Source of the DNA: a virus
Length of the DNA stretch: 49,620 nucleotides
Reading direction: 5' to 3' (one strand)
Virus record (IMG/VR): IMGVR_UViG_3300027674_000005
Coordinates: 1 to 49,620 of that record
Position numbers and translations under genes: made by a program. This document shows, piece after piece, positions 1 to 49,620 of this stretch (within the stretch, counting starts at the first letter, position 1; every line of letters starts with the position of its first letter). A model generated the notes under the pieces. It was not told where the DNA came from, searched no databases, and saw nothing but the letters and a program-made list of their open reading frames with translations.

Positions 1-453
1 GATATCGCGAACGGGGCGCGTGTGCGTCTGCCTGCGTCGCCCCCGCCTGCCACAGTGCGGGCAAGGATAGGTTTTCGGAGCGCACTGACGCTGTACCACG
101 CGAACGCGGGGTTGAACGGCTTCCACTTCGGCCATAAGTAGATCATAGCCCCCAGCAATGTGAGGATGCACCACGTGCCCCCTAACAGTAGGCCAACCCA
201 TAGCACGAACATCATGTTGGGCTCCTTTGGTAATGGGCCGCCAAACTTTCGCGTCACCCCCAGGCGGTCTGACCCTACATGCCAGGGTCACCCGGCATTG
301 ATTACGGGCGATTCCAGCGTCCGCCAGCATCCGGTCGAGGGTCTGCCCCACCATGCCCCGGAAAGGCCGCCCTAGCCTCACGTCGTCAGCCCCAGCGACA
401 TCGCCGACGATCATGATCCGGGCATCCATCGGCCCCTCACTCTGCACATCCAT
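1..453 (-). CDS. UDG-DNA polymerase fusion, N-terminal part (truncated at window edge)
   Basis: This is the N-terminal half of a family 4/5-type uracil-DNA glycosylase domain, which removes uracil from DNA. It is joined in the same polypeptide to a family A polymerase whose remainder is at 48338-49620. The glycosylase signature near residues 12-35 reads RIMIVGDVAGADD then GRPFRGMVGQ, followed by CRVRPP and a GWPT...VHPHIAGG stretch typical of phage UDG-polymerase fusions. Motif 1 is degenerate (GDVAG where GEAPG is usual). The ATG at 453-451 overlaps the upstream stop (TGATG) and follows GAGAGG. After QPRVRVV the last 30 or so codons hold a C-x6-C-x2-CG cluster that does not match the family. 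The frame running off base 1 is one nucleotide out of register with the C-terminal half at the other window end, so the seam is suspect. Confidence 0.8.
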   Translation of the reverse strand, partial: MDVQSEGPMDARIMIVGDVAGADDVRLGRPFRGMVGQTLDRMLADAGIARNQCRVTLACRVRPPGGDAKVWRPITKGAQHDVRAMGWPTVRGHVVHPHIAGGYDLLMAEVEAVQPRVRVVQRQCAPKTYPCPHCGRRGRRRQTHTRPVRDI

Positions 454-1082
454 CACAGACCTCTCATGAATTCACGGTGAGCATCGGCATCGAAACCTTC
501 CTTGCGCTCCGGTGGCGGCATGTGTTGAACGGTGGGTACGGTCGTAGCGGGACAGTGGCTCAAGTAGGCCATACCGACACTAGCTTCTGTGATTCCTGCG
601 AAGTGGAAGGTTTCCCGTAGCACAACCTCCCGCGTCATACGGACGCTGCCGGAAGAAGGTATGTCCGTTATCACCCCCTCAAAGATGTCGGGGCCGCTAC
701 TGTAGTGGCTGAGGGAATCGTCGAAGCGTACACGGTCGCCTACCTTGAAGGTTGGACGGTGGACGGGATTGTGGGTTTGTGCTCCACCAATGGCACCAGG
801 GCCACCGCTGGCAACCGTTGTGCCTGTTGCGCCACCACCACCATACCCAAAGGGAACAGCAACACCGCCCTTGAGCCTGAAGTGTGGACTAGCCAACGAA
901 GTTTGCCACGTTATAGGGACAGCGCCTCTTATATTAGAATGAAAGACACCCTCAACTTCTGCGTAGGGTTCTCCATTGCTGTACGTTCCAATGGATTTAA
1001 TTTTCCCCTCATGAGTTACACGGCATTCTGCGGTGCCGTAAAACTCAACCTCGTCGCCAACCTTGTAGATAACATTGCTCAT
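453..1082 (-). CDS. hypothetical protein with two SH3/KOW-like repeats
   Basis: Unrecognised 209-residue protein. It has two related beta-rich segments, VIYKVGDEVEFYG near residue 4 and TFKVGDRVRFDD near residue 111. The 'KVGDxVxF' pattern is common in SH3-like barrels that bind nucleic acid or protein, so a small adaptor role is inferred only. A Gly/Thr-rich linker separates the repeats. The ATG follows AAGGAG at 6 bases and overlaps the upstream HAD gene by 4 bases (ATGA). The stop overlaps the UDG-polymerase start, so the gene belongs to the same translationally coupled operon as the polymerase. Confidence 0.75.
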   Translation of the reverse strand: MSNVIYKVGDEVEFYGTAECRVTHEGKIKSIGTYSNGEPYAEVEGVFHSNIRGAVPITWQTSLASPHFRLKGGVAVPFGYGGGGATGTTVASGGPGAIGGAQTHNPVHRPTFKVGDRVRFDDSLSHYSSGPDIFEGVITDIPSSGSVRMTREVVLRETFHFAGITEASVGMAYLSHCPATTVPTVQHMPPPERKEGFDADAHREFMRGL

Positions 1083-45604: not shown

Positions 45605-46078
45605 GTGAGTGCCGATTCTAATTTCGACTACTGCATCCCCATCGTGTTGGAGTTCGAAGGGGGGCTTGTCGATAACCCCCACGACCCCGGTGGCACAACC
45701 AACATGGGGATTAGTCAACGGGCTTATCCACACACCGACATCCGTGCACTCACCAAGCCGGAGGCCGAGCAGATCTACTACAACGATTACTGGCTCAAGA
45801 ACTCCTGTGGGGAAGTACCAGTGCATCTGAACCTTTGGTATTTTAATGCGTGTGTTATGAGTGGTGGCGTGACGGCGGCAAAGATCCTTCAACAGGTGGT
45901 GGGAAGCCCGACCGATGGTGTTATGGGTCCACACACCTTGGCCGCTGTGAAGGCATTCCCAAGCTCGGGTTATGTAGAGTATCTTACGCTGTACACGGGC
46001 CATCTGATGTCGCTCCCTGGGTTTAAGACGTTCGGCAAGGGGTGGATGAACAGGTTGTTTAGAATAGCTGCACTCTAA
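45605..46078 (+). CDS. endolysin, GH108 family
   Basis: 157 residues. LEFEGGLVDNPHDPGGTTNM, then GIS is the GH108 (lysozyme/muramidase-like) signature, with E18 the likely catalytic acid. The rest (EAEQIYYNDYWLKNS, PTDGVMGPHTLAAV) matches the family's peptidoglycan-binding end. No signal peptide, so export depends on the holins. GTG start after GAGGA. Its last 20 bases overlap the convergent helicase gene. Confidence 0.9.
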   Translation: MSADSNFDYCIPIVLEFEGGLVDNPHDPGGTTNMGISQRAYPHTDIRALTKPEAEQIYYNDYWLKNSCGEVPVHLNLWYFNACVMSGGVTAAKILQQVVGSPTDGVMGPHTLAAVKAFPSSGYVEYLTLYTGHLMSLPGFKTFGKGWMNRLFRIAAL

Positions 46079-47243
46079 AGGCTTGCTCACCTCCCTTCGT
46101 ACACGTCACAATCATCCGGGACTTCAACAGTCCCATCAACAGTTCCTTAAATCCCTTGTCCGTAGGTGCCACGCTTCTCATGAAGCGTGCTGCCTCATTC
46201 ATTGTGACACCAGCAGCGCCTCCTCTGGTGATGAAATCAAGTAGCCTATCGGAATTGTTAGATGCCTCACTTCGTCCGATGCGATCAAATATAGATGGTA
46301 GGCACTGTTCGAGTCGAGATACTTCGGCTTCGGCACGCTGAAGGTCTTCTGCGGTGATGACTCGTTGGTCTCCCCGTGCCGCAGAGAGGACCATCGCGAG
46401 CTTATGGATGTGCGACTGCTTCCTTGCATTCCATCCACCAAAGCGGCTATCATCTTTCCCTTTCGCGTGAAGAACGTTGTGGGCTTCATACCAGTCAGTG
46501 CCCCACGCCAAAGCACTCTTGTCCAGCTTAAATTCTCCTTCCATGCGCCCAATTGCATTAAGATCATCAACCAAGTGGCGGTGCAACTCTTTCCGTAAGG
46601 GTGTATCTCCCGTAGGGTAGGCAATGAGTTGCCGTTTCGATTCCGCGTAGACCCACACGATACGCGAGACAAGCCCACCATCAAGCATGTAGGCCGGAAA
46701 GTTTCCACTGATCCAGGACGGTGTAGTACACGCCAGGAGATTGAGGAATGGGGAAGATATTGTCTGTTGTCCATCTGCCTTTGTCGCCTTTTCAATTGAG
46801 CCACAGTCCCACATGGTGTTGAGCATGTCCATCATTTCGTTGTCGTCGGGACGAATGAGGTTACCAAGCTCGCCGGAGTGGATCGTCAGGGAGTACGTGG
46901 CTTCATTCTCCCCATTGTAGTTTGTAATAGTCTCGGCCTTCAATAAGCATTCGATCAAGGCTTGCCATGTGGTAGTTGACGGCCCGAAGATCACGCCATC
47001 CACCTTTCGGAGCATCCTCATGGCAGTACCAGTGGTGGTCGTTTTTGCAATAATCCCTGGAGGAGCCACAAGAACTACATACATGTTTGGAAACCACCAG
47101 AAATCTCCTTGCGATACGTAGCACTTACGCTGAAGAGCCCCCGCTATTGCGGAGGCCCCGGACCAAAACAACACGTGATTGGGCGCCTCTCCTGCCTGCC
47201 CATACTCGATGAAACCATCGAGCCAATTGTCAACCTTCCTCAT
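46059..47243 (-). CDS. DUF3987-like primase/helicase ATPase
   Basis: 394 residues. MRKVDNWLDGFIEY..., with APNHVLFWSGASAIAGALQR, and YVVLVAPPGIIAKTTTTG as a P-loop (APPGxxxKTT near 60-70), IHSGELGNL and NLLACTTPSWI match the family of DUF3987 P-loop ATPases in phages, thought to serve as replicative helicase or primase-helicase. The C-terminus has a wHTH-like region. The start follows GGGGGA and overlaps the polymerase gene's stop (ATGA). Its end overlaps the endolysin end. Confidence 0.78.
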   Translation of the reverse strand: MRKVDNWLDGFIEYGQAGEAPNHVLFWSGASAIAGALQRKCYVSQGDFWWFPNMYVVLVAPPGIIAKTTTTGTAMRMLRKVDGVIFGPSTTTWQALIECLLKAETITNYNGENEATYSLTIHSGELGNLIRPDDNEMMDMLNTMWDCGSIEKATKADGQQTISSPFLNLLACTTPSWISGNFPAYMLDGGLVSRIVWVYAESKRQLIAYPTGDTPLRKELHRHLVDDLNAIGRMEGEFKLDKSALAWGTDWYEAHNVLHAKGKDDSRFGGWNARKQSHIHKLAMVLSAARGDQRVITAEDLQRAEAEVSRLEQCLPSIFDRIGRSEASNNSDRLLDFITRGGAAGVTMNEAARFMRSVAPTDKGFKELLMGLLKSRMIVTCTKGGEQAFRVQLF

Positions 47244-47956
47244 TGACAATCCCCCCAACTTTTCGTAGAAGTTTTTATCCCTATTGGAATTAATAGCGGG
47301 TCATCATATGGAATAGGAACCTTGCACTGTTCTCTGATAGAAAGTTCATGCAATTCCTTATTTTCTATCGGGTACTGTAGAGTCAGTGAGTCGTGAACTT
47401 GTAAAAGCACCTCTACTCGGGGCAGGTTAGAGTCAACATTGACATATATCTTGTTGATAAGCACAGCAATCGACGATTGAGGTAGCCATGCTACCATTTC
47501 ATTGAGCGTATTCCCCTCAATCCTATCGAACCACTTCTTCCTATAACCAAACGCATTAGAAACAGTCGCAGTCCGTATACACTTCTTAACAAAATCCTCC
47601 TGCCACTTTTGAATCTCGGGGAACATCCCAAAGTACCATCTCTGAATCCGTTCAACTTCTTTGACCAGTAGCCCGCACTGCCCCGCAATAGTCGGTGCCT
47701 TACCGAGATAGTTCGTCGCATGGCACAGTTTTTTGAACGTATAGTAATGGGGCGAAGCCTTGTTGATCGACGGATCATGAAAGTACTCCCTTGCGATAAC
47801 GAGATAGGGCTTCAAACCTTCGCGAAAAAGGTCCTTCATCCCTTGGCAGTTCGATTCCTGGACAACTATCCTCAGGTCCGCCGAGTCCAGATCCAGATCC
47901 CCCATCATCATGCCTTCGTCCGGCACGAACATCTTCCTCACATTGGGCATCGACAT
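47240..47956 (-). CDS. family A DNA polymerase, catalytic palm/fingers part (split gene, C-terminal)
   Basis: 238 residues with the catalytic part of family A DNA polymerase. RKMFVPDEG near 8-15, motif A GDLDLDSADLRIV at 19-31 (D22 aligns with the catalytic Asp), motif B KKLCHATNYLGKAPTIA near 75-91, and motif C LLQVHDSL at 184-191 (D189). The rest of the polymerase (UDG, exonuclease, thumb) is in a separate gene at 48338-49620. The split falls between NLQNI and the RK.FVP.EG segment, normally contiguous. ATG at 47956 is in frame with motif A and preceded by GGTGG. The upstream gene overlaps it by 182 bases out of frame. Confidence 0.9.
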   Translation of the reverse strand: MSMPNVRKMFVPDEGMMMGDLDLDSADLRIVVQESNCQGMKDLFREGLKPYLVIAREYFHDPSINKASPHYYTFKKLCHATNYLGKAPTIAGQCGLLVKEVERIQRWYFGMFPEIQKWQEDFVKKCIRTATVSNAFGYRKKWFDRIEGNTLNEMVAWLPQSSIAVLINKIYVNVDSNLPRVEVLLQVHDSLTLQYPIENKELHELSIREQCKVPIPYDDPLLIPIGIKTSTKSWGDCQ

Positions 47957-48326
47957 CTGAGACCACCATTCCTTTCATTGTTTGTTCAAGGTCCGTCAAC
48001 GCACCAATGGAGTCTTTGAATGCGTCACGGGGCTTGTGCCACTGGTTCCCGCCGTTGTGTCCACCACGACGAGCCCATTCGTTAGGGTTGAACGGGTTTG
48101 GTCCTAGCTTGTACAGCAGAGAGGGCTTCTTCCCACCCTCCAGGCGCTTCTCGGGGCATCGTTGTAGCATTCCCAAGTGCTCCATCTTCCTGATGGCTAC
48201 ACCGATACAGTCCTCGCCTAGTTGCAACTCTCTTCGTAGCTCCACTCTGGTGGCGCAACCCTTGTCTACGATGTATTCATTGATCCGTTCTGCTGCGAAC
48301 GGCACCTTAGGGTCTTTGAGTCCCAT
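47775..48326 (-). CDS. winged-helix-like protein between polymerase halves
   Basis: 183 residues. Residues 1-75 (KVPFAAERINEYIVDKGCAT, then RVELRRELQLGEDCIGVAIR, and KMEHLGMLQRCPEKR) read as a winged helix, then PNPFNPNEWARRGGHNGGNQW, a motif I associate with short phage replication-region proteins. From about residue 122 the frame is the out-of-frame reading of polymerase motif A DNA and looks unselected. The start MGLKDPK follows GAGGA. An ATG 4 codons upstream overlaps the polymerase stop (TAATG). It separates the two polymerase parts. Confidence 0.72.
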   Translation of the reverse strand: MGLKDPKVPFAAERINEYIVDKGCATRVELRRELQLGEDCIGVAIRKMEHLGMLQRCPEKRLEGGKKPSLLYKLGPNPFNPNEWARRGGHNGGNQWHKPRDAFKDSIGALTDLEQTMKGMVVSDVDAQCEEDVRAGRRHDDGGSGSGLGGPEDSCPGIELPRDEGPFSRRFEALSRYRKGVLS

Positions 48327-48337
48327 TCTTATCCTCA

Positions 48338-49620
48338 TTAGTCACCAGACGTTATGTTCTGCAAATTACAACCTGATCCGAAGGCATCGGTGCTGCTAGA
48401 GAATCTAAAAGTGATGGTCCCTGTAATGTTGTACGAGCAGTGGATGCGCCCATCATACCCAATCGCGTTTGACTTAAGTGCATTCGACGCGAGGGTTTCA
48501 CAGCTACGAAATTCTTTGATACGCCGTACCACAGGGAACAGTATCGGTTCCTTACTGGCAATCTTATAGAGCGCCTCGTCGTCACAGGATAGTGCCTTCG
48601 TTTTTCTATTCCGTACGGGTGCAACACCCATCTCCTCATAGAAGAAATGCTGCATCTGTTTCGACGACTTCGGGTTAAGGGCATAACCGACCATCTCCGT
48701 GACCTCAGACTGTAACGTGTTCGCATGATCCTTCAACTCCTTCAACATCCTTTGGCGTACTTCGTTGTCCACTCGAACACCACGAGCCATAGTCCGAAGA
48801 ACAGGTGTAAAGAGCGATTGTTGAAAGTCGTGTTGCGTACGCAAGCCCATTCGATCGACCACTTCTTGTAGCCTCGTATCGGCCTCAAACGTCCTGATGC
48901 AATCCTCACAGTTGTACGCCCAATACTTATCTTCATCCTGATCGGCTCCCTTGTCCCATTCCTTGCCGTCATCCTTCCAGTAGACGTACCACTCACAGTA
49001 CATCGACGCGATGTAGTCTAGCGATTTGGGCATTCCCGTGAAACATACATGCTGGGCAACCATAGTGTCACGCACGTTTCGCGGGATGAAGTGCCAATGG
49101 CGAAGGATATATTGCGAGTCGTAAATAAAGTTCTGCCCGACTGTGAGTACATTCGGGTTTGTGAGTAGCCGATAGAGCAGCCACACAATCTCAGCCTCCT
49201 CCCCTTCACTCCAGTAGCCTTGGGGGTTCTCGACGCAGAGCAAAGGGATACAGATAGCATCGGTGTTACTCCAGGCAATGCCAAGGCACGCTATGTGACC
49301 GGCACGGGTTTCAATGTCACAAGCCAGCTTCAAGGGGCCTTGTTGACTCGCTTGATAGAGGCTTTCGAGAGATTCCCGCACTTGGGACATCGTAGGCCGT
49401 ATTGTAAAGTTCCATGTTGGTCGAACAGGAGCCCTACCAGCAGCATCGGTGACACGCCGCAAGTCCTGCACGCAACATGGCTTAGATGCCCGTTGTCGCA
49501 AGACACGGGAGGGGTGATAGGCAGGTATGACAAGGCCGTGCTCCGTTTCGAGATACGATCCCCTCCACTTGTCAACGCTGGTGAGACCAGTGAGTGCCCA
49601 CAAGGCAAGATCACCGAGGG
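48338..49620 (-). CDS. UDG-DNA polymerase fusion: UDG C-terminus, 3'-5' exonuclease and thumb (split gene, N-terminal)
   Basis: Continues across the seam from 1-453. Numbering from the first internal start (49603): ALTGLTSVDKWRGS and IPAYHPSRVLRQ near residues 3-37 are the C-terminal half of a UDG (HPS motif). LACDIET at 93-99 is Exo I (D96, E98), VGQNFIYDSQYI near 155-166 is Exo II (D162), and YNCEDC near 230-235 is Exo III (Y230, D234). A thumb-like helical stretch follows, and the gene ends at NLQNITSGD before a TAA. The palm motifs A, B and C are missing and lie in 47240-47956. Proofreading residues look intact. A codon for LGDLALW precedes the first start and fits the UDG consensus. Confidence 0.88.
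   Translation of the reverse strand, partial: LGDLALWALTGLTSVDKWRGSYLETEHGLVIPAYHPSRVLRQRASKPCCVQDLRRVTDAAGRAPVRPTWNFTIRPTMSQVRESLESLYQASQQGPLKLACDIETRAGHIACLGIAWSNTDAICIPLLCVENPQGYWSEGEEAEIVWLLYRLLTNPNVLTVGQNFIYDSQYILRHWHFIPRNVRDTMVAQHVCFTGMPKSLDYIASMYCEWYVYWKDDGKEWDKGADQDEDKYWAYNCEDCIRTFEADTRLQEVVDRMGLRTQHDFQQSLFTPVLRTMARGVRVDNEVRQRMLKELKDHANTLQSEVTEMVGYALNPKSSKQMQHFFYEEMGVAPVRNRKTKALSCDDEALYKIASKEPILFPVVRRIKEFRSCETLASNALKSNAIGYDGRIHCSYNITGTITFRFSSSTDAFGSGCNLQNITSGD

What the first reader, a model, noticed from the sequence alone, without database searches (positions are those of the whole stretch)
47240..48338. Family A DNA polymerase split at the NLQNI / RKxFVPxEG junction with a winged-helix gene between halves
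Exonuclease and thumb end at NLQNITSGD-stop. Palm motifs A, B and C start in a separate gene with RKMFVPDEG 3' of a winged-helix-like gene. Canonical family A polymerases have these motifs in one chain. Split polymerases are known in some phages, but I do not know one interrupted by a winged-helix gene exactly between these motifs. The two parts would have to associate as subunits, or a spliced mRNA or trans-splicing would be needed.
Basis: partly seen in the sequence, partly recalled or inferred. Interest (0 to 1): 0.88.

Follow-up and report, generated by a model that had tools for sequence, protein, structure and literature searches.

The report
Phage DNA polymerase in two pieces
This phage makes its DNA-copying enzyme as two separate proteins, with an unrelated small DNA-binding-type gene sitting between their genes; relatives show that the enzyme has been cut at this same loose loop many times in evolution, so the break is real and tolerated, although phage enzymes in pieces are already a known phenomenon.

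Summary
A family A DNA polymerase (N-terminal uracil-DNA-glycosylase domain, 3'-5' exonuclease, thumb) stops at NLQNITSGD-TAA (48338). Its palm/fingers (motifs A, B, C) are a separate ORF, 47956..47240(-). The ORF between them starts inside the stop codon (TAATG), has coding-like codon usage and a weak winged-helix signature. It is not unique. Among 178 non-redundant relatives fetched, 48 are cut in the same loop. Twelve have 100 nt or less between the halves (down to 2 nt); the others carry unrelated inserts: XRE regulators, HNH homing endonucleases (four), MazG-type pyrophosphatase, dUTPase, thymidylate synthase. Splits fall in 17 all-split clades (13 state changes, at least 8 on strongly supported branches), and a single origin is rejected for a tested subset. 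An AlphaFold model of an unsplit relative shows the loop to be the least confident part of the polymerase domain. Both halves are under purifying selection and keep catalytic residues. Best reading: a two-subunit polymerase made by stop/start-coupled translation, broken repeatedly at a dispensable loop, at least sometimes by free-standing homing endonucleases, the gap then serving as a cargo site. Splicing, frameshifting and sequencing error are disfavoured. This is a new variant of known phage 'genes in pieces' (T4-like gp43A/B, Aeh1 NrdA; PolA of MEP401).

The parts
48338..49618 (-). N-chain of the split family A DNA polymerase: end of the uracil-DNA-glycosylase domain, 3'-5' exonuclease (DIET, QNFIYD, YNCED), thumb and the TFRFSSS/NLQN motifs; runs off the right end of the record
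1..456 (-). start of the same N-chain: uracil-DNA-glycosylase domain; the ends of the record lie inside polA, and the last ~100 nt towards position 1 no longer match polA
47957..48338 (-). insert at the fission point: coding part of the small winged-helix-like gene, its ATG sharing the A of the N-chain's TAA
47775..47956 (-). out-of-frame tail of the insert ORF overlapping the start of the palm gene; does not score as coding in that frame
47240..47956 (-). C-chain (palm/fingers): motif A DLDSADLR, motif B KKLCHATNY, motif C QVHDS; own start ATG with purine-rich upstream sequence
46059..47258 (-). downstream DUF3987 primase/helicase-like gene; a DUF3987-type gene or an unnamed gene of like size follows the palm in the relatives read

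Best explanation
The phage's replicative family A polymerase is a natural two-chain enzyme. Chain 1 (UDG-exonuclease-thumb, ending just after NLQNI) and chain 2 (palm/fingers with motifs A, B, C) are made from one operon and assemble non-covalently into a polymerase. The break lies in the flexible loop between NLQN[IV] and [LM]PN[IV]RK, which tolerates a chain break. Ribosomes finishing chain 1 restart on the overlapping ATG (stop/start coupling) to make the insert protein; the palm start is reached from its own start site. The break has arisen repeatedly in this phage group, at least sometimes by insertion of a free-standing HNH homing endonuclease. Once broken, the gap was colonised or exchanged by other small genes, here a winged-helix-like one that probably acts as an independent DNA-binding protein. 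Shown: the two ORFs, recurrence, loop position, conserved catalytic residues, purifying selection, HNH genes at the site in four loci. Inferred: assembly into an active enzyme, coupled translation, homing as cause, function of the insert.
For: Same cut in 48 of 178 non-redundant relatives, 12 with 100 nt or less between the halves. Split state needs 13 changes on a 163-row tree, at least 8 forced by strong branches, in 17 all-split clades; on a 38-row subset one split clade is rejected, p-AU about 1e-4. 43 of 48 N-chain stops have an ATG within -4..+2 nt, against 132 of 361 other gene ends. Reading-frame offsets of the two chains are evenly spread (17/16/15), which disfavours a shared frameshift. 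Both chains: pN/pS about 0.2-0.35 with near-saturated synonymous sites. D705, K758 and D882 equivalents and QVHDS invariant in 14 split palms. AlphaFold of an unsplit relative: mean pLDDT 91.4, residues 541-550 (the loop) 65, the lowest block; fold matches Pol I, Foldseek 3.6e-30. HNH genes in the gap of L003, L012, L199, L233; L012's nearest relative L092 is unsplit. Precedent: phage 25 43A/43B co-purify with polymerase activity, and split Aeh1 NrdA is fully functional (PMC2988022).
Against: No biochemical, RNA or mass-spectrometry evidence; the complex could not be modelled (single chains only). Most gaps contain no endonuclease, so homing is shown only as plausible. The phage might rely on another polymerase, although both halves are conserved. 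In the window the insert ORF has no stop near the palm start, so palm translation must depend on its own ribosome-binding site.
Confidence: 0.82

Rival explanations
1. The insert is a self-splicing intron (group I or II) and the mature mRNA encodes one polymerase chain, as in SPO1, Bastille and KASIA.
For: Group I introns do interrupt phage polymerase genes (PMC11878797, PMC8541194), and the MEP401 authors suggested one for their split PolA.
Against: No Rfam intron in the window or nine split relatives. The 382-nt insert is coding throughout, whereas intron non-coding parts average about 350 nt in the phages surveyed. Twelve relatives have gaps of 2-95 nt. Chain 1 ends and the insert starts with overlapping stop/start codons.
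Confidence: 0.04
2. Programmed frameshift or stop read-through joins the insert protein, or chain 1, to the palm.
For: The insert ORF overlaps the palm by 181 nt with the palm in the +1 frame, and similar overlaps occur in L002, L004 and L009.
Against: Frame offsets between chain 1 and the palm are spread evenly over the three frames in 48 split loci. The overlap is not coding-like in the insert frame. Similarly long open shadow frames occur in a minority (11 of 92) of unsplit genes.
Confidence: 0.05
3. The gene is broken and the polymerase non-functional, or the split is a sequencing or assembly error.
For: Metagenomic contig; the record's ends lie inside polA.
Against: The same split in many independent contigs and an isolate genome (Vibrio phage VS-ABTNL-3); strong purifying selection on both halves; conserved catalytic residues.
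Confidence: 0.02
4. The fission is ancestral and unsplit relatives are re-fusions; the inserted HTH protein is a dedicated third subunit of the polymerase.
For: The window clade has been split throughout (9 rows, starred support), and HTH-type inserts recur within it.
Against: Inserts are of many unrelated families, or absent, across split lineages. L012 is split among unsplit relatives. Counts of changes cannot by themselves tell gain from loss.
Confidence: 0.07

Closest known systems
Split PolA of OM43 phages MEP401/MEP402 (Zobellviridae), gp13/gp14/gp15 (PMC10580990)
   Same: Family A polymerase in two ORFs, exonuclease plus N part and palm, with a small unrelated ORF between
   Different: Cut about 20 residues further on, just before motif A (gp13 ends KTLFLSRYGE, gp15 starts MILNADAKALEWV); no UDG domain apparent in gp13; authors guessed an intron
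T4-like split PolB gp43A/gp43B of Aeromonas phages 25 and 44RR (PMC2988022)
   Same: Replicative phage polymerase encoded in two pieces, in phage 25 with a homing endonuclease (seg) associated; pieces co-purify and are active
   Different: Family B polymerase, different fold; few related phages
Genes-in-pieces NrdA of phage Aeh1, split by mobE (Friedrich et al. 2007, as cited in PMC2988022)
   Same: Free-standing homing endonuclease breaks an essential gene into two functional chains
   Different: Ribonucleotide reductase, not a polymerase; one described case with the endonuclease still in place
DNA polymerase I ORFs of Aeromonas phage MQM1 with HNH gene (PMC10410586)
   Same: PolA in several ORFs with an HNH gene between
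   Different: Three pieces with two intervening ORFs; interpreted by its authors as putative introns
Group I introns in phage polA (SPO1, Bastille, KASIA)
   Same: polA interrupted, often with HNH genes
   Different: RNA splicing restores one chain; not indicated here

Membership tests
Family A DNA polymerase | Pfam DNA_pol_A match with motifs A, B, C and catalytic Asp residues | tested here: met
   Two consecutive partial matches covering profile 5-131 and 140-357; D22, K75, D189 equivalent to D705, K758, D882
Family A DNA polymerase | Pol I fold | tested here: met
   Met by an unsplit relative (L045): Foldseek to Klenow 3.6e-30; not folded for the window chains themselves
Genes-in-pieces enzyme (T4-like gp43A/B, Aeh1 NrdA type) | One ancestral gene divided into two ORFs, nothing but linker lost | tested here: met
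Genes-in-pieces enzyme | Break associated with a free-standing homing endonuclease | tested here: inconclusive
   None in the window; HNH genes in the gap of relatives L003, L012, L199, L233
Genes-in-pieces enzyme | The two chains assemble into an active enzyme | not testable with these tools
   Only indirect: purifying selection on both chains
Group I/II intron | Recognisable intron RNA | tested here: not met
Split intein | Intein halves at the ends of the exteins | tested here: not met
   Read directly from the sequence: chain 1 ends four residues after NLQNI; palm homology begins three residues after the palm's start Met
Winged-helix DNA-binding protein (insert) | Profile or fold match to a winged-helix family | tested here: inconclusive
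   Pfam NrtR_WHD 0.031 below cut-off; low-confidence model; Foldseek not significant

The most novel reading that the evidence does not exclude
A whole group of phages uses an obligate two-subunit family A polymerase whose active site is built from two chains. The fission is selectively favoured rather than merely tolerated, for example because the gap lets a DNA-binding or metabolic gene be co-translated in fixed ratio with the polymerase and possibly act with it.
Probability: 0.15. Interest if true: 0.8.

Novelty: new variant of a known kind. Interest (0 to 1): 0.55.

Why it matters
It suggests a natural, repeatedly evolved two-chain family A polymerase, cut at one predictable disordered loop a few residues before motif A. 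That gives a ready system to ask how a replicative enzyme survives fission, what causes it (homing endonucleases or chance stop/start mutations), and whether split polymerases behave differently. It also warns annotators and marker-gene surveys: a quarter of the relatives fetched here would be missed or counted as truncated if polA must be one ORF, and surveys that kept only F/L/Y at position 762 would exclude this His762 group.

Tried and rejected
Intron: Rfam at gathering and relaxed thresholds gave nothing. Relatives of the winged-helix protein: none in IMG/VR with near-exact peptide patterns, none in phage records, no reliable match to the SANT/winged-helix inserts of L010 and L020 (hhalign probability 0.4%). 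Prophage copies in GTDB genomes: none. Frameshift between insert and palm: rejected on frame statistics and codon usage. The two chains as a complex could not be predicted with the tool.

Full report
Observation. The window is a complete IMG/VR record of 49,620 bases. On its minus strand the polymerase N-chain ends GSGCNLQNITSGD* at 48338, and the palm ORF 47956..47240 begins MSMPNVRKMFVPDEG. Pfam DNA_pol_A covers profile positions 5-131 in the first and 140-357 in the second, with an exonuclease domain before them, so almost nothing but a linker is missing. The ORF between (48338..47775) starts at the A of the N-chain's TAA (TAATG). Its part before the palm start scores as coding (0.151 against 0.13-0.31 for trusted genes), while its tail over the palm does not (-0.128); only 0.75% of shuffles of the insert leave a frame open. 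The winged-helix assignment stays weak.

Relatives. The closest relatives (70-74% identical palms) are split at the same point but carry different genes there: XRE regulators in L002, L004 and L009, and an XRE regulator followed by an HNH endonuclease in L003, whose N-terminus MPMPNI repeats the palm start. Within the same clade L010 and L016 carry a MazG-type pyrophosphatase plus HTH genes, and L020 a SANT/winged-helix-like gene. Further out, L036, L043, L065 and L143 are cut with 2-30 nt between the chains. A scan seeded with the split polymerase of Vibrio phage VS-ABTNL-3 found 35 of 79 relatives split at the same loop; this fraction is biased by the split seed. In all, 48 of 178 non-redundant relatives are split, 12 with gaps of 100 nt or less. 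Phage MW202489 and many others are unsplit.

Evolution. On a tree of 105 polymerases the split state needs 6 changes, at least 5 on strong branches. On 163 rows it needs 13, at least 8 on strong branches, with splits in 17 all-split clades. For 38 well-placed rows, one clade of split genes is rejected (p-AU about 1e-4, with or without L012). Counts of changes do not say how many are fissions and how many fusions. The window clade is split throughout (9 rows, starred).

Why here. In unsplit relatives the linker between NLQN[IV] and PN[IV]R varies in length and sequence. An AlphaFold model of an unsplit relative, L045, is confident (pLDDT 91.4, pTM 0.87) and its lowest block of ten residues, 65, is 541-550, this loop. 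The fold matches Klenow and Bst polymerase. The cut separates the exonuclease, thumb and TFRFSSS/NLQN motifs from motifs A, B and C.

Function kept. Between window and clade members pN/pS is 0.21-0.33 for the N-chain and 0.23-0.29 for the palm, with synonymous sites near saturation. Equivalents of D705, K758 and D882 and the QVHDS motif are invariant in 14 split palms.

Expression. In 43 of 48 split loci an ATG lies within -4..+2 nt of the N-chain stop, against 132 of 361 ends of other large ORFs. This fits stop/start-coupled translation of the next gene. Chain-1-to-palm frame offsets are evenly distributed (17/16/15), which disfavours programmed frameshifting or read-through.

Cause. HNH endonuclease genes occupy the gap in L003, L012, L199 and L233; L003 and L012 HNH proteins are homologous, 44% identical. 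L012's nearest relative, L092, is unsplit. Homing endonuclease insertion is therefore a plausible cause in some lineages; in others chance stop/start mutation or loss of the endonuclease would do. Other gap genes (dUTPase, thymidylate synthase, nucleoside deoxyribosyltransferase, Mom-like, methyltransferase-like, an extra exonuclease) look like cargo.

Known background. Splitting of essential phage genes by free-standing endonucleases into functional two-chain enzymes is established for Aeh1 NrdA and discussed for T4 topoisomerase; the 43A/43B polymerase chains of phage 25 co-purify with activity (PMC2988022). Split PolA was reported for MEP401/402, cut about 20 residues further on and suspected to hold an intron (PMC10580990). 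Group I introns in polA occur elsewhere but are not indicated here. The contribution here is the recurrence at one loop, the small-gap fissions, and the variety of inserted genes. I found no paper describing this in the library searched, which lacks most subscription journals.

Noticed in passing
window 1-456 and 49618-49620: The record's two ends lie inside polA; there is no terminal repeat. About 100 nt at the left end (minus strand, reading RVVQRQCAPKTYPCPHCGRRGRRRQTHTRPVRDI) no longer match the UDG domain and look zinc-finger or transposase-like, perhaps an insertion where assembly broke.
   Followed up: partly
window 47720-47724 (H79 of the palm) and relatives: The residue equivalent to E. 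coli Pol I Phe762 is His in the palms aligned here; surveys of viral PolA kept only Phe, Leu or Tyr (PMC9069017). R754 is Tyr in the split palms of alignment A7.
   Followed up: partly
window 1-456, 48338-49618: A uracil-DNA-glycosylase superfamily domain is fused to the N-terminus of the exonuclease-polymerase, also seen in relatives.
   Followed up: no
L003 4327-5014: The HNH gene's N-terminus (MPMPNI) duplicates the start of the palm gene, as if the endonuclease gene had inserted at the palm start and a new start had formed downstream.
   Followed up: no
L180 1159-2987: A gap of 1,845 nt between the polymerase halves holds five ORFs, including a Mom-like DNA modification gene and a second exonuclease-type gene.
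   Followed up: no
L174 and L177: Both carry a nucleoside 2-deoxyribosyltransferase-like gene (phrog_355) in the polymerase gap.
   Followed up: no
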